A stretch of 64,000 nucleotides of DNA. Source: Pusillibacter faecalis (lineage in GTDB: Bacteria > Bacillota > Clostridia > Oscillospirales > Oscillospiraceae). Below, piece by piece: positions 6,996 through 18,974 of the stretch (position 1 is the stretch's first letter; every line of letters starts with the position of its first letter). The position numbers and the translations under genes were made by a program. The stretch is from the NCBI RefSeq assembly GCF_018408705.1, contig NZ_AP023420.1:558001-622000 (forward strand), in the 5' to 3' direction. The notes beneath the pieces are model-generated. The model was not told where the DNA came from. It searched no databases and saw nothing but the letters and a program-made list of their open reading frames with translations.

Positions 6996-9900
6996 CTATT
7001 TGCTCAGATAGTAGAGGAAAGAATTGAGCCTGGACCATGCGTTCTCATCCCAGTCGTAATCCATGGCCAGATGGAAGTGCGGTACACTGTCCAGCACACC
7101 GGTCATCTCCAGGATCGTGGCGGTATTTTCATACCTGGGTGCCATGGTCAGCACCCCGGCGCACCGTCCGCCCAGCTCCAGCCCCTTGACCAGCCGGTAC
7201 CGGCCATTGGCTCCGGCAAATCCGGGCAGAAGGCGGTCTGCGGAGGAGCGCAGAGACTCCAGTTCAGGGGAAAAACTGCTGCGGGGGCCCAGCAGACGGC
7301 CGAGTGCTTCTATGCGGCCCGCCCACTCCCGGCAAGTCTGGCTTCCCGCATCCCGCCAGAGAAGCCACAGATATTCGCTCAGCGGCGCCCGGAGCAGCCG
7401 CCAGCCCTCCTGTTCCAGCGTATCGGGGACGCCGTCATGAAGGTTGAAGAGGGTGAACGGCTCGCCCACGATCCCCAGCGGCCGTCCCTCCGCCGGAATG
7501 GCGCCGATGTGCGCCGCGAGGGCTTCCAGCTCCGCCCAACTCGGCACACCCGCCGGAGCCAGTGCGTCCCGCTGTTCCGGCGGAGCGCATAGCAGGAAAT
7601 CGCCGGCGAGGATCGCCCGGACCAGCAGATCCGGCTCCGGGCAGCGCTCCGGAATCGTCTCCAGCTCCGGCGCGATGACCTTCACACGGCAAAGCCCCCG
7701 GCGTTCCAGTACCGACTCCACGCCCCATGGGTATTGCCCGTCTGCCTCCGCGCCCTGGGTGGAGGGGAGAAGCACCTGAAACGGGCCGCTCTCCACTTCC
7801 GCCGCCGTCAGGATGCCGCCCAGCAGGGCCGGGAACGGCAGATACTCCTTGGAGCTGGTTTCCGCCCTCCCCAGCGGCAGGGTGGTACTGTCGAGCCGCA
7901 GGGTGCGCGTCTCTGTTTTCCAGGCCGCCTCACAATATGCGCGGAGATAAGCGGTAAACGGCGGAAGGTCAGGCACGAGCAGCGGCCCTCCGGTTCTCTC
8001 CGGCACGGCAGCCACCGCAGTAGGGCGGCGCACTACCGCGGCGAGGGAAAAGCCCGCCGGAAGCGGCTGGGCAGGGCGGCCCTCCAGGCTCTGGAGGAAC
8101 GCCTCGATCCGTGTGATCACGCCCACGGGAGAGAAATGCTCGTCCACTTCGATCTGCAGATAGGGCTTGTCCCCCATCTCCTTCCGAAACAGATAGGAGA
8201 GCATGGTGTCCGGGCCGCAGCCGTGATTGGTCAGGTAGACGGCATACAGGTTTGGATGGTGGGCCACGAGCTTGGCCCCGGACAGGATGTGCTGGCCAAA
8301 GGGCCAGTACAGATTGGGGTAGTCCTCCGACAGATCCAGGTCGTGGGCGGGCAGGTGGGACAGGGTGATGACCTTATGCCCGCGCTCCAGCAGCAGCCGT
8401 GGAATTCCCATGTTGAGCACCGGGTCGGAAAGGCCATAGTTCCGGGTAATGAGCACCAGCACCTTGTCGTCCGGCCTGAGGGATGCCAGCAGTTCCCGCC
8501 CCTGCTTCTCCACTGCCGCGGTATGCCGCCGCACCGCCTTGGCCCCGGACAGCAGGGCGGGCAGGCAGCGCGGCTTTGGTATTCCCAGCTGCTTCCCAAC
8601 GCCCAGCATGGCGGAGGCCATGGCCTCCTGCCCGAAGTCCAGGTCAAACACCGGGTTGAGCAGGGCGATCCCCCGCCGCTCCAGATCCAGGGCATTGGCC
8701 GCCAGCCGGGGCGCAGTCTGCATATAGACGCAGCCATAATTGTGCTCCACATGGGAGGACTCGTGCCTCATGGTGTGAACAGAGGGCATGAAGATATAGT
8801 CCACGCCCTGTTCCGCCAGCCATGCCATGTGGCCGTGGAGTAGCTTCGCCGGGTAACAGGTTTCCGCCTGGGCAGTCTGCTGGGCCAGCCGGATGATCTC
8901 CTCATTCGTGGGCGGGGAGAGCAGGACATTGAATCCCAAGTTCCGGAAAAACGCATTTGCCATGGGGAAGAATTTGTGGATCACCAGCGCATAGGGGACA
9001 CCCACCGTCTTTTTCCCTGGGACCCGGATGGGGTCATACCCCTCCAGCAGCAGCGCCCCCGCCCGCTGGTAGAAGGCGATGTTCTCCGCCACCCCTGGGC
9101 CGGCGGCGTGTTCCGCCCCGGTCGCTGTGTCAAATCCGTGGAAGCAGGACGGGCCGCGGACCGACTCCAGCGCCAGCAGGGCCGCTCCATAGGCGCCGCT
9201 GATGGGGAAACAGGGCGAAACCGTGAGCCGCTCCCCCAACTCCTGCTGAAACGCAGCCACAATCCCGGGATTGTAGGCGACGCCGCCCTGAAGCACCACG
9301 CGGCTCCCGACGGGCTTGGCCCCAACGACCTTGTGGAGGTAGTTGCGGACAATGGACCGACACAGGCCGGCCGCCACCTCCGCCTGGGAGGCGCCACGAG
9401 AGAGCGCAGACTGGATGGCTGTCTCGATAAATACCGTACACCGCTCTCCCAGCTCCACCGCGCTGGGCGCGCTGAGGGCCAGGGGACCGAACTCCGCCAA
9501 TGGGATGCCCATGCGCGCTGCCTGCTCTTCTACAAAGGAGCCGGTCCCGGCGGCGCAGATCCTGTTCATCTGAAAGTCGGCCACCTGTCCGCCCCGTAGG
9601 GAGATATACTTGGAGTCCTGCCCTCCAATCTCAAAGACCGTATCTACATCCGGCGACCAATGGACAGCCGCCCGGGCCTGGGCGGTGATCTCATCCCGCA
9701 CGGCGTCCGCCCCGATAAGACGGCCGATGCGCTCCCGGCCGGAGCCAGTGACGCCCACTGCCAGGAAGGACACCGGCCCAAAGCGTTCATGGATGGCGTC
9801 CAGGCCCCGGCGCACCGCCCCCTCCGGGTCCCCGGCTGTGCGGAGATACTGGTAGTCGATCAGCGTGCCGTCCCGGCCGGTGAGCACCAGATCCGTGCTG

Positions 9901-10862
9901 GTGGAGCCCACATCAATCCCCAGGACGCACCCATCCGGCGGGATGGTACCGGTGGCCGCGGGGACAGACGGAAGTGTACCGGGAAGCACACGCAGCGCCG
10001 GCTGACGGCACATCTGGTTCCCACCTTCCAGCGCCCCGCCGCATAAACTGGCCAGCAGTTCCCCCATAGAGCAGGTGGCGGTCTCCATGGCTGCCTCCGC
10101 GGCTCCAACGGCGCCGGCGTAAGGGAATTTCTCCGGCAAGATCAGCTCTGCTTCTGACAATCCGAAGACCTCCCGCACAGCCTGGATCACACCCTGATTA
10201 TGCCCGATGCCGCCGCACAGGGCCACAGGCTTTTCCACGGGAAGCCCCCGGACGATCACCGCCTTGTAGTTGCGCACCATGGCGTAGCAAAGGCCCAGGA
10301 GGATGTCCGGTGTGGGCACCCCCTCCTGCTGCCGGTGGATGATGTCCGTTTTGGCGAAGACCGCGCAGCGGCCGGAGAGCCTGGGGATGGAGCGGGCCTG
10401 CCCCACCAGGCGGGAGTAGTCCTCCAGTTTTAGTCCCAGCCGGGACATCTGATCCTCAAAAAAGGAGCCGGTACCTCCGGCGCAGTGTTCATTTACCGCA
10501 AACCGGGGCGGGGTGTTCTGATCCAAGCCGGTGAGGAAGCGGGCGCTCTGGCTGCCGATCTCAATGGCGGAGCGGGCTTCCGGGGCCAACAGCCGAACGC
10601 CGAGGTGGATGGCTGGGATCTCCCCCAGCACGGCCAGGGCATTGCACCCCGCTTTCAGCCGGTCGCCCGCGTTTCCGGTGATGACCACCGGGCAGCCGCA
10701 GGCCCCCGGGTCCGCGGCTAAAAGCTCCCCCAGCAGACGGCGGGCGCTCTGAACCACCGCTCCATAGTGGGAAGCCGTTTTTTCCCAAAGGAACGTTCCC
10801 TCTGGAGAAAGCAGGACGAGTTTCAATGTGGCGTTTCCACAATCCAATCCGATTCCGTTCAT
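6996..10862 (-). CDS. Double activase: 2-hydroxyacyl-CoA dehydratase activator (BadF/BcrA family) fused to DUF2229-type domain
   Basis: A 1288-residue fusion. Two ASKHA/BcrAD-BadFG ATPase modules lie in tandem (about 1-270 and 320-580). Each has the paired cysteines that hold an intersubunit [4Fe-4S] cluster in HgdC-type activators: Cys127/Cys166 (CAGGTGSF, GRCAVF) and Cys436/Cys475 (CAAGTGSF, GERCTVF), both 39 residues apart. The rest resembles the DUF2229/HgdB-like half, with conserved Cys in AETCYPAKLLHG, NYGCVYM and NHGCGPD. Such proteins use ATP to drive electrons to very low potential, either for dehydratases or for double-cubane cluster reductases; the physiological substrate here is unknown. 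Start at 10862: GGAGG six bases upstream. Divergent from the Crp/Fnr gene and sharing its control region. Confidence 0.85.
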   Translation of the reverse strand: MNGIGLDCGNATLKLVLLSPEGTFLWEKTASHYGAVVQSARRLLGELLAADPGACGCPVVITGNAGDRLKAGCNALAVLGEIPAIHLGVRLLAPEARSAIEIGSQSARFLTGLDQNTPPRFAVNEHCAGGTGSFFEDQMSRLGLKLEDYSRLVGQARSIPRLSGRCAVFAKTDIIHRQQEGVPTPDILLGLCYAMVRNYKAVIVRGLPVEKPVALCGGIGHNQGVIQAVREVFGLSEAELILPEKFPYAGAVGAAEAAMETATCSMGELLASLCGGALEGGNQMCRQPALRVLPGTLPSVPAATGTIPPDGCVLGIDVGSTSTDLVLTGRDGTLIDYQYLRTAGDPEGAVRRGLDAIHERFGPVSFLAVGVTGSGRERIGRLIGADAVRDEITAQARAAVHWSPDVDTVFEIGGQDSKYISLRGGQVADFQMNRICAAGTGSFVEEQAARMGIPLAEFGPLALSAPSAVELGERCTVFIETAIQSALSRGASQAEVAAGLCRSIVRNYLHKVVGAKPVGSRVVLQGGVAYNPGIVAAFQQELGERLTVSPCFPISGAYGAALLALESVRGPSCFHGFDTATGAEHAAGPGVAENIAFYQRAGALLLEGYDPIRVPGKKTVGVPYALVIHKFFPMANAFFRNLGFNVLLSPPTNEEIIRLAQQTAQAETCYPAKLLHGHMAWLAEQGVDYIFMPSVHTMRHESSHVEHNYGCVYMQTAPRLAANALDLERRGIALLNPVFDLDFGQEAMASAMLGVGKQLGIPKPRCLPALLSGAKAVRRHTAAVEKQGRELLASLRPDDKVLVLITRNYGLSDPVLNMGIPRLLLERGHKVITLSHLPAHDLDLSEDYPNLYWPFGQHILSGAKLVAHHPNLYAVYLTNHGCGPDTMLSYLFRKEMGDKPYLQIEVDEHFSPVGVITRIEAFLQSLEGRPAQPLPAGFSLAAVVRRPTAVAAVPERTGGPLLVPDLPPFTAYLRAYCEAAWKTETRTLRLDSTTLPLGRAETSSKEYLPFPALLGGILTAAEVESGPFQVLLPSTQGAEADGQYPWGVESVLERRGLCRVKVIAPELETIPERCPEPDLLVRAILAGDFLLCAPPEQRDALAPAGVPSWAELEALAAHIGAIPAEGRPLGIVGEPFTLFNLHDGVPDTLEQEGWRLLRAPLSEYLWLLWRDAGSQTCREWAGRIEALGRLLGPRSSFSPELESLRSSADRLLPGFAGANGRYRLVKGLELGGRCAGVLTMAPRYENTATILEMTGVLDSVPHFHLAMDYDWDENAWSRLNSFLYYLSK

Positions 10863-10886: not shown

Positions 10887-10915
10887 TTGACATTTGCCAG
10901 ACAAAGCGCTATAAT
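10887..10915 (+). promoter_or_regulatory. Perfect consensus sigma-A promoter of the Crp/Fnr gene
   Basis: TTGACA at 10887-10892 and TATAAT at 10910-10915 are separated by exactly 17 bases. The predicted start point (about 10922) falls inside the GGTTAG-N6-CTAACC operator at 10918-10935, so binding there should block transcription. Confidence 0.85.
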
Positions 10916-10917
10916 GC

Positions 10918-10935
10918 GGTTAGCATTTACTAACC
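10918..10935. promoter_or_regulatory. Operator GGTTAG-N6-CTAACC between activase and crp
   Basis: Perfect 18-base inverted repeat GGTTAGCATTTACTAACC. It overlaps the predicted start points of both divergent promoters. The same GTTAG-N6-CTAAC element recurs at 11734-11749, 18859-18874 and 18956-18971. Confidence 0.75.
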
Positions 10936-10974
10936 ATAGCAGTTTACAGCGCAGTTGTCGATTGCCACGGCAAC
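10926..10974 (-). promoter_or_regulatory. Activase promoter with Crp/Fnr-type site at -41.5
   Basis: On the minus strand a -10 TATGGT (10938-10933) predicts a start at about 10926. The palindrome ATTGCCACGGCAAC (10961-10974, half-site RTTGC, N4 spacing) is centred at 10967.5, exactly 41.5 bp upstream, the class II Crp/Fnr activator position. There is no good -35, as expected for an activated promoter. Confidence 0.7.
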
Positions 10975-10987
10975 ATGGAGGTATCTC

Positions 10988-11665
10988 ATGGACCCGATTA
11001 CTACGGTGATGCGTCAGTGCCGCCTGTTTGACGGCATCCCGGAAGAGAAATATCAAAATGTACTGGCCTGCCTTCGGGGAGAAACCAAATCGTTTCGTAA
11101 GGATGCCATCCTCCTCCAGATCGGCGAGTGCCAGAAGCGGCCCGGCGTTGTGATGGATGGGACGCTGCGGATCTCCCTGTATAGTGAGGACGGCAATTTG
11201 GTCACCATCGAACGGCTGGGGCGGGGGCAGGTATTTGGGGAGACTCTGGTGTGCTCCATGGCGGAGGACAGTCCCATCCAGATCGACGCGCTGACTGATG
11301 TGCAGGTGCTCTATCTGGATTTTGACCCGCTGCTTCTTCAGCAGGAATGCGCCTGTCCGCACAAAGCCCAGGTCACCGCCAACCTGCTCCGTGAAATGGG
11401 GCGGGGCGCCCTTTTTCTCAATCAGAAAATGCGGATCTTGGCCCAGAACCGGCTCCGAAACCGGATCAAGCTCTATCTCCAGATGCTCCCCGCCAAGCCC
11501 GGCGGCGAACTCCATCTGGACATGGGGCGGGGTGAACTGGCCGACTATCTGTGTGTAGACCGCAGCGCCCTCTCCCGGGAACTGGGGCGTATGCAGAAAG
11601 AGGGAATTCTCGCCTTTCAGGGCCAACAGGTGCGTATTCTGGATCAGAGCTTTCTCAGCGTATAA
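10988..11665 (+). CDS. Crp/Fnr-family transcriptional regulator
   Basis: 225 residues, typical of the family. An N-terminal cyclic-nucleotide-binding-like beta-barrel (about 10-120) contains GVVMDGTLRISLYSEDG and GQVFGETLV. A dimerisation helix follows, then a winged helix-turn-helix (about 160-215) with RGELADYLCVDRSALSRELG. Several Cys are present (CRLFDG, ACLRG, GECQ, ECACP) but not the N-terminal four-Cys set of enteric Fnr, so the signal cannot be named. Start at 10988: TGGAGG seven bases upstream; an ATG-less extension to 10955 has no ribosome site. It probably activates the activase, ABC and cupin promoters at RTTGC-N4-GCAAY sites and may be autoregulated. Confidence 0.9.
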   Translation: MDPITTVMRQCRLFDGIPEEKYQNVLACLRGETKSFRKDAILLQIGECQKRPGVVMDGTLRISLYSEDGNLVTIERLGRGQVFGETLVCSMAEDSPIQIDALTDVQVLYLDFDPLLLQQECACPHKAQVTANLLREMGRGALFLNQKMRILAQNRLRNRIKLYLQMLPAKPGGELHLDMGRGELADYLCVDRSALSRELGRMQKEGILAFQGQQVRILDQSFLSV

Positions 11666-11670
11666 ATTTT

Positions 11671-11707
11671 GCCTGCCCGTTGCCATGGCAACGGACAGGC
11701 TTTTTTG
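11671..11707 (+). terminator. Terminator of crp that contains a Crp/Fnr-type palindrome
   Basis: GCCTG-C-CCGTTGCC / GGCAACGG-A-CAGGC forms a 14-bp stem with one mismatch, followed by TTTTTT. The heart of the stem, GTTGCCATGGCAAC (11679-11692), is also the site placed at -41.5 of the next promoter, so one sequence appears to serve as RNA terminator and DNA operator. Confidence 0.8.
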
Positions 11708-11750
11708 CGGGTGCTATCATATCGCTGCAACAGGTTAGTTACTGCTAACC
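11679..11750 (+). promoter_or_regulatory. ABC-operon promoter: activator palindrome, -10 box and downstream operator
   Basis: GTTGCCATGGCAAC is centred at 11685.5. The -10 TATCAT at 11715-11720 predicts a start at 11727, exactly 41.5 bp downstream. A perfect GGTTAG-TTACTG-CTAACC operator follows at 11733-11750, just past the start point, a position fitting repression. AGGAG at 11764-11768 serves the first gene. Confidence 0.75.
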
Positions 11751-11776
11751 AAAAATTCTTGAAAGGAGAGTCGCAC

Positions 11777-12802
11777 ATGAAACGCGCTCTTGCATCCCTG
11801 GCAGCATCCGCGATGCTGTTGTTTGCCCTGGCTGGCTGCTCCAACGGAAATGGTCCGGCCGAAAATCCCTCCGCATCCCCCACATCCCCGCCGGCCAGTT
11901 CCACGCAGGCCGCCGAGCCGGTGACCATCTCAGTGGGTGTACCTACCGCGCCCCCGGCACTTCCCGTCCTGCACATGATGGAGGCTGGACTGCTGGGAGA
12001 GAATGTGACTATCGACCTGAATGTGTGGAACTCCCCCGAGGAGCTGCTGGCCATGGTCCAGGGCGGGGAGCACGACCTGTACGCTTTCCCACTCACTGTG
12101 GTTTCCACACTCTACAACAAGGGCCTGGATGTGCGCCTGATGAATGTGAATACCTGGGGCGTCACCTATTTCATGACCACGGACCCTGCGTTTGAAACCT
12201 GGGCCGATCTGGCCGGCAAGACCGTCTATATCCCCCTCCAGTCCTCTCCTCCGGACGCTCTGACCCAGTATTTCCTGAATGAAGCCGGGCTGACGGTGGG
12301 TGAGGATGTGGAAATCGTCTACGCCAGCACCGCCGAGGTGGCCGCCCTGCTGGCCTCCGGCGAGGCGGAATATGCCACCCTGATCGAGCCACAGGTCACA
12401 TCCGCGATGAACCAGAACAGCGAAGTACGCCGGGCGCTCAGCTTTGAAGAGGAGTGGCAGCGGGTCACCGGCACCGACACCATGATCCCCAACGCCGGCT
12501 TCGGCACCACCCAGAGTTTCATCGACGAAAATCCGGAGCTGACAGAGCAATTCCAGGCCGCCTACGCTGAGAGCGTCCAGTGGGTGCTGGACCACCCCGC
12601 CGAGGCCGCCGCTCTGGCCGAGGAGCACCTGGGCATGAAGGCCGCTGTGGTAGAGGCCGCGATCCCCAATATGGGCCTGACCTTCAAGAGCGCCCAGGAC
12701 GCCCGGGGAGAACTGGATACATTCTATAATCTGCTCAACGACTTTGACCCCTCGATGATCGGCGGAAAACTCCCCGACGACGGGTTATACTATGCGGGGT
12801 AA
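11777..12802 (+). CDS. ABC transporter substrate-binding lipoprotein (NitT/TauT/SsuA-like)
   Basis: 341 residues. An N-terminal lipoprotein signal (MKRALASLAASAMLLFALAGC, lipobox LAGC with Cys at about 21) is followed by a Ser/Thr/Pro linker and a periplasmic-binding fold of the NitT/TauT type (ISVGVPTAPPALPVLHMMEA, then DLAGKTVYIP and LLASGEAEYATLIEPQ). It would capture a small molecule outside the membrane for the permease and ATPase that follow. Family members take up nitrate, sulfonates or thiamine precursors; the ligand here is unknown. Start at 11777 is set by AGGAG. It overlaps the permease gene by 11 bases. Confidence 0.87.
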   Translation: MKRALASLAASAMLLFALAGCSNGNGPAENPSASPTSPPASSTQAAEPVTISVGVPTAPPALPVLHMMEAGLLGENVTIDLNVWNSPEELLAMVQGGEHDLYAFPLTVVSTLYNKGLDVRLMNVNTWGVTYFMTTDPAFETWADLAGKTVYIPLQSSPPDALTQYFLNEAGLTVGEDVEIVYASTAEVAALLASGEAEYATLIEPQVTSAMNQNSEVRRALSFEEEWQRVTGTDTMIPNAGFGTTQSFIDENPELTEQFQAAYAESVQWVLDHPAEAAALAEEHLGMKAAVVEAAIPNMGLTFKSAQDARGELDTFYNLLNDFDPSMIGGKLPDDGLYYAG

Positions 12803-13541
12803 GGCGGCCCTCTGGCTCCGCCGCGCCCTGGGCGTGGGCCTGCTGCTGGGTATCTGGCAGCTGGCCTCGCTCTGTTTCTCCCCTCTGGTGCTCCCTTCTG
12901 TCCCACAGGTGACGGGTACGCTGGCAGGACTGTTCCGGGAGCCGGATTTCTGGCCCACCATCGGCACTACTCTGCTGCGTCTGGCGCTTGGCCTGGGAAT
13001 CGGGGTTGCGGTGGGCACGGTGCTGGGACTGCTGTTCGGGCTGTGCCCCAAACTGGAAGATGTGGGGATGCCGTTCATCCATGTGCTCCAGTCGGTACCT
13101 CCGGTATGCTGGGTCGTGCTGGCCCTGGTATGGTTTGGGTTCAATGGCTGGCCCTGTGTATTCATTGTGGCGACATCCACCATTCCAACGGTGGTGATCA
13201 ACCTGAGCCATGGCGTGCGGAGTGTAGACCCGGAGCTTCTGGAGATGGCGAGGCTCTACCGCTTTTCCCGCAGGAAGATCCTGCTCCATGTGACGCTGCC
13301 CTCCATCCGCCCTTATTTCTTCTCCGCACTGGAGATCGTCGTGGGCGGCGGGTGGAAACTGGCGGTGATGGGAGAGGTCCTCACCACGAACAGTGGGATC
13401 GGCGGCGCCATCACCACCGCGAGGCTGAATATCCAGCCCGACGCGATCATCGCGTGGGCATTCCTGCTGGTGGCAGGATGCTTTATTACGCAGAAGCTGG
13501 TGTGCCTGCTTCTGTCCAGGAGAGGGGGAGCCCCATGCTGA
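12792..13541 (+). CDS. ABC transporter permease (NitT/TauT/SsuC-like)
   Basis: 249 residues with about six hydrophobic segments and the binding-protein-dependent transport fold. The EAA-like coupling loop for the ATPase lies around ELLEMARLYRFSRRKILLHV, followed by LPSIRPYFFSALEI. Length and composition match SsuC/TauC permeases. It overlaps the binding-protein gene upstream by 11 bases and the ATPase gene downstream (ATGCTGA), so the three are co-translated as one importer. Confidence 0.88.
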   Translation: MRGKAALWLRRALGVGLLLGIWQLASLCFSPLVLPSVPQVTGTLAGLFREPDFWPTIGTTLLRLALGLGIGVAVGTVLGLLFGLCPKLEDVGMPFIHVLQSVPPVCWVVLALVWFGFNGWPCVFIVATSTIPTVVINLSHGVRSVDPELLEMARLYRFSRRKILLHVTLPSIRPYFFSALEIVVGGGWKLAVMGEVLTTNSGIGGAITTARLNIQPDAIIAWAFLLVAGCFITQKLVCLLLSRRGGAPC

Positions 13542-14275
13542 GACTGAGCGGGCTCTGCAAGCGCTTTGAGGATCTGCCCGTACTCTCAAACCTGTCCCTC
13601 ACCCTGTCCCGGGGCGAGATTGTCGCCTTGATCGGCCCCTCCGGCTGCGGGAAAACCACGCTGCTGAACATCATTTCCGGCCTGACGGCGCCGGATGCCG
13701 GTACGGTGGAGGGTGCGGATGGCAGGCTGAGCTATATGTTTCAGAGCGCCCGGCTGCTGCCCTGGCGCACGGTGGAGGAAAACATCCGGCTGGTGCGGGA
13801 GGACGCGCCCGCCGAGGAAGTGCGCTCCCTCATCACTGCTGTGGGGCTGGAGGGGTTTGAACGCTATTATCCCGGCCAACTCTCCGGCGGCATGGCCCGC
13901 CGGTGCGCCCTGGCCCGGGCATTCCACTTCGGCGGTGAGATTTTCCTGATGGACGAGCCATTTCAGGGGCTGGACTACGGAATCCGCATGGAGATGCTGT
14001 CCATGCTGTTATCCATCTGGCAGCGGGAGCGGCCCGGGGTGCTTTTTGTTACACATGAGATCGACGAAGCGCTCACTGTGGCGACCCGCATCGCCGTGCT
14101 CGCTCCGCGCCCCACTGCAATCTGCCAGTGGTTTGACCTCCCCGGCCCGGAGGGGCGGGACGCCTCCGCCCCTGAACTGGCCCGACTGCGCCAAGAGATC
14201 ATCCGGCGAATCACTGGTTATAACCAGTCTGGTTGCCACGGCAATGGCGGCCCACAAGAAAAGGTGATATACTAA
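13535..14275 (+). CDS. ABC transporter ATP-binding protein (NitT/TauT/SsuB-like)
   Basis: 246 residues with complete nucleotide-binding motifs: Walker A GPSGCGKTT (about 36-44), signature LSGGMARRCALARA, Walker B IFLMDEP and the switch His in FVTHEIDEA. It powers the importer formed with the two genes upstream. The start ATG at 13535 overlaps the permease stop; GGAGAGGGGGAG lies just upstream. The last 20 codons contain the palindromes and -10 box of the cupin promoter, so the gene end doubles as a control region. Confidence 0.88.
   Translation: MLRLSGLCKRFEDLPVLSNLSLTLSRGEIVALIGPSGCGKTTLLNIISGLTAPDAGTVEGADGRLSYMFQSARLLPWRTVEENIRLVREDAPAEEVRSLITAVGLEGFERYYPGQLSGGMARRCALARAFHFGGEIFLMDEPFQGLDYGIRMEMLSMLLSIWQRERPGVLFVTHEIDEALTVATRIAVLAPRPTAICQWFDLPGPEGRDASAPELARLRQEIIRRITGYNQSGCHGNGGPQEKVIY
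14213..14273 (+). promoter_or_regulatory. Cupin promoter with Crp/Fnr-type site at -41.5
   Basis: The -10 TATACT at 14268-14273 predicts a start at 14280. The palindrome GTTGCCACGGCAAT (14232-14245) is centred at 14238.5, exactly 41.5 bp upstream. A separate perfect 16-base palindrome, ACTGGTTATAACCAGT, lies at 14213-14228, centred near -59.5; its half-site GGTTA echoes the other operators. All lies within the 3' end of the ATPase gene. Confidence 0.7.
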
Positions 14276-14303
14276 CTTTTAGAACACGGAAGGAGGCTCG
14301 GAA

Positions 14304-14639
14304 ATGGACATTCTCCGCAATCTGCCGGTTCAGCAGCCGGCGGCTCTGAGCGAACTCATCTCCATCCAGCCGGGGCGCGTGGTGAGCATGGCTCTTTCCC
14401 GTAGCGAGCACTGCCAAATGACGCTGTTGGCTTTTGGGGACGGAGAGAGTATCAGTGAGGAGCGCTACTTCGGCGACACGGTCTATTATGTGCTGGAGGG
14501 TGATATGCCTCTGCGCCTGGAGGGGCACGAGGTTTGTCTGGGCGCAGGGGATTGTCTGGCTGTGCCAGCGCAGACCACCCACGCCATTGGCGGGAACGGC
14601 CCCTTCAAACTGCTGCAAATTACCATCCAATCAAACTGA
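14304..14639 (+). CDS. Cupin-fold protein lacking motif-1 histidines
   Basis: 111 residues, one small beta-barrel cupin domain. The motif-1 region (ESISEERYFGDTVYYVLEG) keeps the Gly and Glu framework but has no His-x-His. Motif 2 has one His (PAQTTHAIGG). Metal binding, and so enzymatic activity, is doubtful; a ligand-binding or chaperone role is possible. GGAGG lies nine bases before the ATG. It is a tandem paralogue of the next gene (same length, similar N-terminus NLP...QP), so one probably arose by duplication. Confidence 0.8.
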   Translation: MDILRNLPVQQPAALSELISIQPGRVVSMALSRSEHCQMTLLAFGDGESISEERYFGDTVYYVLEGDMPLRLEGHEVCLGAGDCLAVPAQTTHAIGGNGPFKLLQITIQSN

Positions 14640-18838: not shown

Positions 18839-18858
18839 TACAGTTTCCCTCTCATCTT

Positions 18859-18971
18859 GTTAGTTTTTGCTAACTATTCAGTACAAATAAAATACCAGAA
18901 CCGCAGTTTGCCAGATACTTTTGCTTATCTGCACTCCTACCCCTGGCATTCAATAGTTAGCATTTACTAAC
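18859..18971 (-). promoter_or_regulatory. HMA-operon control region with two GTTAG-N6-CTAAC operators
   Basis: GTTAG-TTTTTG-CTAAC at 18859-18874 and GTTAG-CATTTA-CTAAC at 18956-18971 (extended to TAGTTAG...CTAACTA at 18954-18973), 97 bases apart. The second core is identical to the activase/crp operator. A candidate extended -10 (TGGTATTTT, TATTTT at 18894-18889) lies between them. Two sites far apart could support looping or two promoters. Confidence 0.7.
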
Positions 18972-18974
18972 TAA

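What the first reader, a model, noticed from the sequence alone, without database searches (positions are those of the whole stretch)
10887..14280. Three promoters with one Crp/Fnr-type palindrome at exactly -41.5
RTTGC-N4-GCAAY palindromes occur at 10961-10974, 11679-11692 and 14232-14245. For each, the nearest downstream -10 box (TATGGT, TATCAT, TATACT) predicts a start point 41.5 bp from the palindrome centre, once on the minus strand and twice on the plus strand. That is the class II Crp/Fnr activator geometry, and a Crp/Fnr gene sits in the middle of the set. Together they define a regulon: double activase, ABC importer, two cupins. The agreement at three independent sites is unlikely by chance.
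Basis: partly seen in the sequence, partly recalled or inferred. Interest (0 to 1): 0.85.

Follow-up and report, generated by a model that had tools for sequence, protein, structure and literature searches.

The report
Crp/Fnr switch with three promoters
A gut bacterium carries one regulator gene and three matching DNA sites placed where such regulators usually switch genes on, and both the sites and most of the spacing are kept in related species, so this is very probably a real small control circuit, apparently with an iron-type switch laid over it.

Summary
RTTGC-N4-GCAAY occurs exactly at 10961, 11679 and 14232, each with a -10-like hexamer starting 36 bp after the palindrome's first base. 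In ten orthologous loci (three lineages) the palindrome is kept at site 1 in 10/10, site 2 in 10/10 and site 3 in 7 of 9 that cover it. Offset 36 is kept at site 1 in 10/10, site 2 in 7/10 (37 in L052-L054) and site 3 in 7/7.

The same layout stands beside paralogous regulators: of 60 palindromes in 117 loci, 55 have a divergent -10 at offset 36, and 4 have one towards the crp gene. In 80 held-out loci the half-site's fifth base tracks the recognition helix (R185 with C 9/9, others 1/30), though independent events are few. So the 225-aa regulator very probably acts as a class II activator here.

The regulator is HcpR-like but lacks two of five Cys/His positions common in paralogs. Nothing was tested at the bench.

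The parts
10961..10974 (.). Site 1, palindrome ATTGC-CACG-GCAAC; operator of the divergent activase promoter P1 (read on the minus strand), centre -41.5
   Evidence: conserved in 10 of 10 orthologous loci
10956..10961 (-). -35-like hexamer TCGACA of P1
10933..10938 (-). -10 hexamer TATGGT of P1 (TATAGT in 7 relatives, TATGGT in 3), offset 36 in all
10887..10915 (+). Consensus sigma-70 promoter TTGACA-17-TATAAT of the crp gene; hexamers and spacing kept in all 11 aligned sequences
10918..10935 (.). DtxR-type box GGTTAG-N6-CTAACC over the start of the crp promoter and the -10/+1 of P1
10988..11665 (+). 225-aa Crp/Fnr regulator; recognition helix VDRSALSRELG (R185 in CRP numbering, assigned by eye)
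   Evidence: PF13545, PF00027
6996..10862 (-). 1288-aa acyl-CoA dehydratase activase-like protein (two BcrAD_BadFG stretches + DUF2229), target of P1
11679..11692 (.). Site 2, palindrome GTTGC-CATG-GCAAC; operator of importer promoter P2
11671..11700 (.). 15-bp-arm inverted repeat around site 2, RNA hairpin (-21.3 kcal/mol) followed by T6: terminator-like end of the crp transcript
11692..11697 (+). -35-like hexamer CGGACA of P2
11715..11720 (+). -10 hexamer TATCAT of P2, offset 36
11733..11750 (.). DtxR-type box GGTTAG-N6-CTAACC, centred about 15 bp after the predicted P2 start
11777..12802 (+). Substrate-binding protein, NMT1/SsuA-like
12792..13541 (+). ABC permease
13535..14275 (+). ABC ATPase; its frame runs through site 3 in the window (stop before it in L047 and the L048 lineage)
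14232..14245 (.). Site 3, palindrome GTTGC-CACG-GCAAT; operator of cupin promoter P3
14268..14273 (+). -10 hexamer TATACT of P3, offset 36 (TATATT or TATCAT in relatives)
14304..14639 (+). Cupin 1
   Evidence: PF07883
14651..14986 (+). Cupin 2
   Evidence: PF07883

Best explanation
The 225-aa regulator is an HcpR-like Crp/Fnr protein that binds RTTGC-N4-GCAAY as a dimer and, from -41.5, activates three promoters as a class II activator: P1 (activase, divergent), P2 (ABC importer) and P3 (two cupins). Its own gene is read from a consensus promoter that should need no activator. A DtxR-type metal-dependent repressor, probably iron-sensing, covers the crp start and P1 with one box and the P2 start region with another. 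When iron falls, the regulator is made and two of its three target promoters are freed at the same time: a coherent feed-forward loop. SHOWN by sequence: the sites, spacings, conservation, helix-operator correlation and boxes. INFERRED: binding, activation, the identity and metal of the repressor, and the effector. The loss of two of five Cys/His positions common in paralogs suggests that the effector differs from theirs.
For: Palindrome kept: site 1 10/10, site 2 10/10, site 3 7/9 orthologous loci that cover it. Offset 36 to the -10: site 1 10/10, site 2 7/10 (37 in the other three), site 3 7/7. In L051 about 720 bp more lie between the crp gene and site 2, yet site 2, its -10 and the box are kept. 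Palindrome+22+WANNNT over nine genomes: 25 of 30 hits are cluster sites (15 of 18; 10 of 12); reversed control 1 + 1. Sixty palindromes in 117 paralogous loci: divergent -10 at offset 36 in 55/60 (4/60 towards crp); at 5 of 6 matches 38/60 against 0/60. Held-out helix test: R185 with C5 9/9, others 1/30; GT-palindrome in 39/80 loci against 0.65% per locus in shuffles. Boxes: conserved at both places; ten DtxR-family proteins over the cut-off; other boxes just before FeoA, FeoB, DtxR-type and ZIP genes. In E. coli, 19 of 23 FNR-activated promoters with a known start have the site at -41.5 +/- 4 (PMC3688515, passages).
Against: No binding or transcript data. The ten relatives form three lineages, and the five of the L048 lineage are near-identical here. 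Site 3 is not found in L052 and L053, and site 2 spacing is 37 in L052-L054, where the region is TA-rich and other readings are possible. Site 2 conservation may partly reflect the RNA hairpin. On the paralog tree R185 changes only 4 times; two independent pairs on supported branches, sign test p 0.5. 17 of 26 held-out R185 loci have no exact GT-palindrome. The prediction fixed was borne out only in part: GTTGC for R185 7 of 9, GTTGT/GTTGA for A or N185 15 of 22, GTGGT for K or H185 0 of 1. Imperfect sites of A, S and K185 proteins can carry one GTTGC half. Offsets 28, 31 and 33 also score in paralogs. The two-mismatch scan for the iron box is below its control (56 against 89).
Confidence: 0.8

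Rival explanations
1. The palindromes belong to this regulator, but it acts mainly as a repressor or roadblock (site 1 also lies 13 nt before the crp start codon), and the -41.5 agreement is a by-product.
For: Site 1 is downstream of the crp start point, next to its ribosome-binding site.
Against: Exact offset 36 at three sites in two lineages and at 55 of 60 paralogous palindromes in one orientation; P3 is not found by the sigma-70 consensus scan, as expected for an activator-dependent promoter.
Confidence: 0.1
2. The DtxR-type boxes are the real control of the cluster; the TTGC palindromes are secondary, and at site 2 only the stem of a terminator or leader hairpin.
For: Boxes conserved at both places; one member of each of the three lineages was folded and site 2 is a stem in all three, with different outer stems.
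Against: No inverted repeat of 6 bp or more is centred on sites 1 and 3; site 3 has no box; palindrome and -10 keep their spacing at all three; in L051 site 2 keeps its sequence although it no longer follows the crp gene directly.
Confidence: 0.07
3. Chance: three TTGC palindromes and three -10 hexamers picked after the fact.
For: RTTGC-N4-GCAAY occurs 19 times in the genome (5 for the reversed control); the other 16 all fall in some open frame of 80 codons or more, which is weak evidence of coding.
Against: Conservation in ten orthologous loci; 25 of 30 hits of the joint pattern in nine genomes are the cluster sites.
Confidence: 0.02

Closest known systems
HcpR / HcpR2 regulators (Crp/Fnr family) of anaerobes, hcp-frdX regulon
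   Same: Same protein family; palindromic 5-N4-5 operator; regulator divergent from a target; 15 of 24 paralogous loci read have a divergent 4Fe-4S frdX-like gene (by eye). Co-variation of helix positions 180 and 181 with the operator is published (PMC1274295, passages read).
   Different: Targets here are an activase, an ABC importer and cupins, not hcp/frdX; operator RTTGC-N4-GCAAY instead of GTAACnnnnGTTAC; two of five Cys/His positions common in paralogs are lost; a DtxR-type box lies at two promoters.
E. coli FNR and CRP class II promoters
   Same: Dimer site centred at or near -41.5 (PMC3688515, passages read).
   Different: Half-site and register: FNR box TTGATnnnnATCAA and CRP-like wTGTGAnnnnnnTCACAw as quoted in PMC1274295.
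Lmo0753 (PDB 7t8o)
   Same: Closest solved structure by sequence (E 8.4e-17); shares LSRELGRMQKE in the recognition helix.
   Different: Only overall similarity; no target or operator compared here.
DtxR/IdeR iron boxes (consensus recalled, from no call)
   Same: GGTTAG/CTAACC half-sites; boxes lie just before FeoA, FeoB, DtxR-type and ZIP genes in this genome.
   Different: Spacer of 6 between the half-sites; which of the ten DtxR-family proteins binds is unknown.

Membership tests
Crp/Fnr transcription factor | cNMP-binding domain plus Crp-type HTH | tested here: met
   PF00027 5.5e-9 and PF13545 3.1e-10, both above cut-off
Class II Crp/Fnr-activated promoter | Palindromic site centred at about -41.5 of the start | tested here: met
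   From predicted -10s only: offset 36 at three sites, conserved apart from 37 at site 2 in L052-L054; starts not mapped
Class II Crp/Fnr-activated promoter | Measured start point, binding and activation | not testable with these tools
   needs bench work
HcpR regulator | Target hcp and/or frdX next to the regulator | tested here: not met
   Neighbours are activase, ABC importer and cupins, unlike 15 of 24 paralogous loci read
HcpR regulator | Cys/His positions common in the paralogs (C28, C89, C119, C123, H126) | tested here: not met
   C28, C89, C123 kept in 10/10 orthologs; 119 is Q and 126 is K or R in 10/10. That these are ligands is inferred, and that they define HcpR is not established
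HcpR regulator | Operator of HcpR2 type GTAACnnnnGTTAC | tested here: not met
   RTTGC-N4-GCAAY instead; the 2005 paper reports other motifs where position 181 is Ser, as here
DtxR-type iron box regulon | Boxes in front of iron genes and a DtxR-family protein in the genome | tested here: met
   iron genes picked by eye among 20 fetched regions
DtxR-type iron box regulon | Metal-dependent repression of this cluster | not testable with these tools
   needs bench work

The most novel reading that the evidence does not exclude
A lineage of HcpR-like regulators lost part of its Cys/His sensor, moved to a new gene set and was wired under an iron repressor, giving an iron-gated feed-forward loop. Across this clostridial Crp/Fnr family, residues 185 and 182 of the recognition helix set the fifth base of the half-site (R185 to C; G182 to A; N, S or T185 to T) while the -41.5 divergent promoter layout stays fixed, so operators and nearest targets of many uncharacterised paralogs could be predicted from the protein and its neighbourhood.
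Probability: 0.4. Interest if true: 0.65.

Novelty: new member of a known kind. Interest (0 to 1): 0.5.

Why it matters
It turns a reading of three short motifs into a testable circuit in Pseudoflavonifractor/Flavonifractor-type gut bacteria. It also suggests a rule, an operator at fixed -41.5 spacing beside the regulator gene with a half-site that follows helix residues 182/185, by which the nearest targets of many unstudied clostridial Crp/Fnr regulators could be predicted and checked with simple binding assays. It gives a first regulatory clue (iron limitation plus an unknown signal) to an activase/importer/cupin cluster whose substrate is unknown.

Tried and rejected
Chance was rejected on conservation. 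"Site 3 is just coding sequence" was rejected because L047 and the L048 lineage stop the ATPase before it. "Site 2 is only a terminator" was not fully rejected: a hairpin forms in the one member folded of each lineage, the T-tract is clear only in the window lineage, and -10 spacing is also kept. A wider regulon was sought: one further own-genome site with -10 at offset 36 precedes a rubrerythrin gene (L095) and one in G022 a lactate dehydrogenase (L103); neither recurs among the joint-pattern hits of the nine genomes, so both are left out of the regulon. A G022 site (L104) precedes an frdX-like gene (by eye) and may belong to a paralog. Two further G306 hits were not examined. The search with RTTGCCNNGGCAAY and two mismatches was too loose to use. 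The recognition code as a strict rule was softened: few independent events, K185 with GTTGC in L199, mixed half-sites at imperfect sites. The G182-A rule was seen only after the held-out data and is post hoc; R185-C was fixed before. Literature: listings, judged by titles and abstract starts, showed nothing describing this operator or cluster; passages of PMC1274295, PMC12915319 and PMC3688515 were read, no paper in full. No close plasmid copy of the regulator was found (best 34.1% identity).

In one search the site of the window and of L047 was entered by hand as GTTGC (their left half is ATTGC) and L046 was left out. One search read minus-strand loci on the wrong strand; one search repeats it oriented. 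My note says seven DtxR proteins left of the window; the recount gives six.
Full report
What is in the sequence. The window is G000:C1:558001-622000 of a 3.4-Mb genome. By the regulator protein the nearest named records are Clostridiales bacterium CCNA10 (L046, 100%) and Pseudoflavonifractor sp. Marseille-P3106 (L047, 98%). RTTGC-N4-GCAAY occurs exactly at 10961-10974, 11679-11692 and 14232-14245 and nowhere else exactly in the window. Genes: activase-like protein 6996-10862 minus (two BcrAD_BadFG stretches, DUF2229), Crp/Fnr regulator 10988-11665, NMT1/SsuA-like binding protein, permease, ATPase, and two cupins. The -10 hexamers TATGGT (minus), TATCAT and TATACT all start 36 bp after the first base of the palindrome, so the centre is at -41.5 of the predicted start.

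Is it more than chance? At the other 16 exact sites of the genome, -10-like hexamers turn up at 19 of 1312 oriented offsets other than 36 (1.45%). Three sites sharing any common offset would be expected at about 1e-3, before allowing for the motif having been chosen after the fact. Conservation is the stronger test. Ten orthologous loci (L046-L055; regulator 75-100% identical) form, with the window, three lineages: window, L046, L047; L048-L051, L055; L052-L054. The palindrome is present at site 1 in 10 of 10, at site 2 in 10 of 10, and at site 3 in 7 of the 9 that cover it; L052 and L053 lack it and the L054 contig ends first. From site 1 to the minus-strand -10 the alignment is gapless in all 11 sequences (TATAGT in seven relatives, TATGGT in three and in the window). 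At site 2 the -10 is at offset 36 in 7 of 10 (TATTAT, TATCAT, or AATAAT in five) and at 37 in L052-L054 (TATCAT, TATCGT), where the run is TA-rich and other readings are possible. At site 3 it is at 36 in all 7. One bp of play is normal: direct FNR targets of E. coli include -40.5, -41.5 and -42.5, and 19 of 23 activated promoters with a known start lie at -41.5 +/- 4 (PMC3688515, passages). In L051 about 720 bp more lie between the crp gene and site 2, yet site 2, its -10 and the box behind it are kept.

The joint pattern palindrome + 22 + WANNNT was run over nine genomes. In the window's genome and four relatives it gave 18 hits, of which 15 are the three cluster sites in each genome; the reversed control gave 1. 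In four further genomes it gave 12 hits, of which 10 are cluster sites (3, 3, 3 and, in L053's genome, 1 of 3), control 1. Site 3 looked doubtful because the window's ATPase frame runs through it, but in L047 and in the L048 lineage the ATPase stops before the palindrome.

The layout recurs in the family. I took Crp/Fnr genes of the same bacterial family in order of similarity (a capped list), plus more distant hits, and fixed a prediction before fetching 80 further loci. In 117 paralogous loci (orthologs of the window's gene excluded) there are 60 non-redundant exact GT[TG]GN-N4 palindromes within 200 nt of the regulator start. They show a -10 (4 of 6, A2, T6) at offset 36 in the divergent orientation in 55 of 60 and towards the crp gene in 4 of 60; at 5 of 6 the figures are 38 and 0. 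Offsets 28, 31 and 33 also score (28, 37 and 34 of 60 at 4 of 6), because the region reads like TATAGTATACT, but 36 is the peak. Among the ten with R185, six have the -10 at 36. Of 24 loci with longer flanks read, 15 have a divergent 4Fe-4S protein of the frdX kind, 4 another gene, 2 gave a wrong-frame reading, 2 no frame and 1 no palindrome; genes were named by eye. This places many of the paralogs in the HcpR setting.

The half-site follows the protein. In the held-out 80 loci, 39 have an exact GT-palindrome near the regulator start (0.65% per locus in shuffles), and 20 of the other 41 have an imperfect one with a divergent -10 at offset 36 (0.56% in shuffles). Among the 39, R at position 185 (CRP numbering, assigned by eye) goes with C as fifth base in 9 of 9, other residues in 1 of 30. 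G182 goes with A in 7 of 7, others in 0 of 32, but that rule was seen only after the data. The exact prediction was met for R185-GTTGC in 7 of 9 (the others GTCGC, GTATC), for A/N185-GTTGT or GTTGA in 15 of 22 (seven A185 have GTTGG), and for K/H185-GTGGT in 0 of 1. The window's regulator has R185 and RTTGC sites. Against this: related proteins are not independent. On a tree with the helix masked R185 changes only 4 times, and two independent pairs lie on supported branches, so no significance can be claimed after correction. 17 of 26 held-out R185 loci have no exact site, L199 (K185) has GTTGC, and imperfect sites mix halves. Rodionov et al. 2005 already reported co-variation of positions 180 and 181 with the operator, and other motifs where 181 is Ser (PMC1274295, passages). 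The passages read name 185 as a DNA contact in CRP but report no correlation for it.

A second control lies on top. GGTTAG-N6-CTAACC is at 10918-10935 and 11733-11750. The core GTTAG-N6-CTAAC is kept at the first place in 9 of 10 relatives (L052 has TTAG-N6-CTAA) and at the second in 10 of 10. The genome has seven exact copies of the full box. In 20 regions fetched around boxes, and 10 proteins picked from them by eye, boxes lie just before FeoA (two places), FeoB, two DtxR-type genes, a ZIP gene and two Trep_Strep membrane-protein genes; a ferritin gene follows one of the DtxR genes. Ten DtxR-family proteins pass the Pfam cut-off. The looser two-mismatch scan is below its control (56 against 89). 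The first box covers the start of the crp gene's own promoter (TTGACA-17-TATAAT, hexamers and spacing the same in all 11 aligned sequences) and the -10/+1 of the divergent activase promoter; the second is centred about 15 bp downstream of the predicted importer start. P3 has no box.

How it most likely works. When iron is plentiful a DtxR-type repressor shuts the crp gene, P1 and P2. When iron falls, the regulator is made from its strong promoter and, with its effector, activates P1, P2 and P3 from -41.5: a coherent feed-forward loop. The sites, spacing, conservation and boxes are shown; binding, direction, metal and effector are inferred. The effector probably differs from that of the paralogs: C28, C89, C119, C123 and H126 are common in 117 paralogs (104, 80, 99, 99 and 98), but in the 10 sequences of the orthologous group examined 119 is Gln and 126 Lys or Arg, while C28, C89 and C123 stay.

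Site 2 has a double life. In RNA it is the top of a hairpin in the one member folded of each lineage (-21.3, -32.5 and -24.8 kcal/mol in window, L053 and L048), followed by T6 in the window. It may end the crp transcript as well as serve as operator, so its conservation alone would not prove an operator.

Verdict. As a kind of thing it is known: a class II Crp/Fnr local regulon in the HcpR neighbourhood. The helix-operator rule and the altered sensor are the parts worth bench time.

Noticed in passing
window 18858-18875 and 18955-18972: Two DtxR-type boxes (TGTTAGTTTTTGCTAACT, AGTTAGCATTTACTAACT; two mismatches each to the full box) upstream of the minus-strand run HMA protein, AraC regulator, DUF6110, P-type ATPase.
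   Followed up: partly
G000:C1:497140-557957 (L202, L203, L204, L205, L207, L208): Six of the genome's ten DtxR-family proteins lie within about 61 kb just left of the window, interleaved with boxes and regulator and ABC exporter genes named by eye.
   Followed up: partly
L095:1481-1494 (G000:C1:1915680): GTTGCATTAGCAAC with TATACT at offset 36 before a rubrerythrin gene in the window's own genome; may be a fourth site of this regulator or of a paralog.
   Followed up: partly
L103:3926-3939 (G022:C12:53925): GTTGCAATAGCAAC with TATGAT at offset 36 before a lactate dehydrogenase gene in a relative.
   Followed up: partly
L048, L049, L050, L051, L055 around the second iron box: In the importer leader the GTTAG box is nested in a longer inverted repeat whose outer arms differ between strains but stay mostly complementary, suggesting an RNA hairpin.
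   Followed up: no
L051:8676-9418: About 720 bp more than in the other relatives between the crp gene and site 2; content not examined.
   Followed up: no
paralog loci L056-L062, L065-L067: Paralogs with [VIL]ER[ST]ALSK carry GTGGT-N4-ACCAC upstream; several sit divergent to a 4Fe-4S frdX-like gene.
   Followed up: partly
window 14213-14228: A 16-bp perfect palindrome ACTGGTTATAACCAGT just upstream of site 3, kept in L046, changed in L047 and absent in the L048 lineage.
   Followed up: yes
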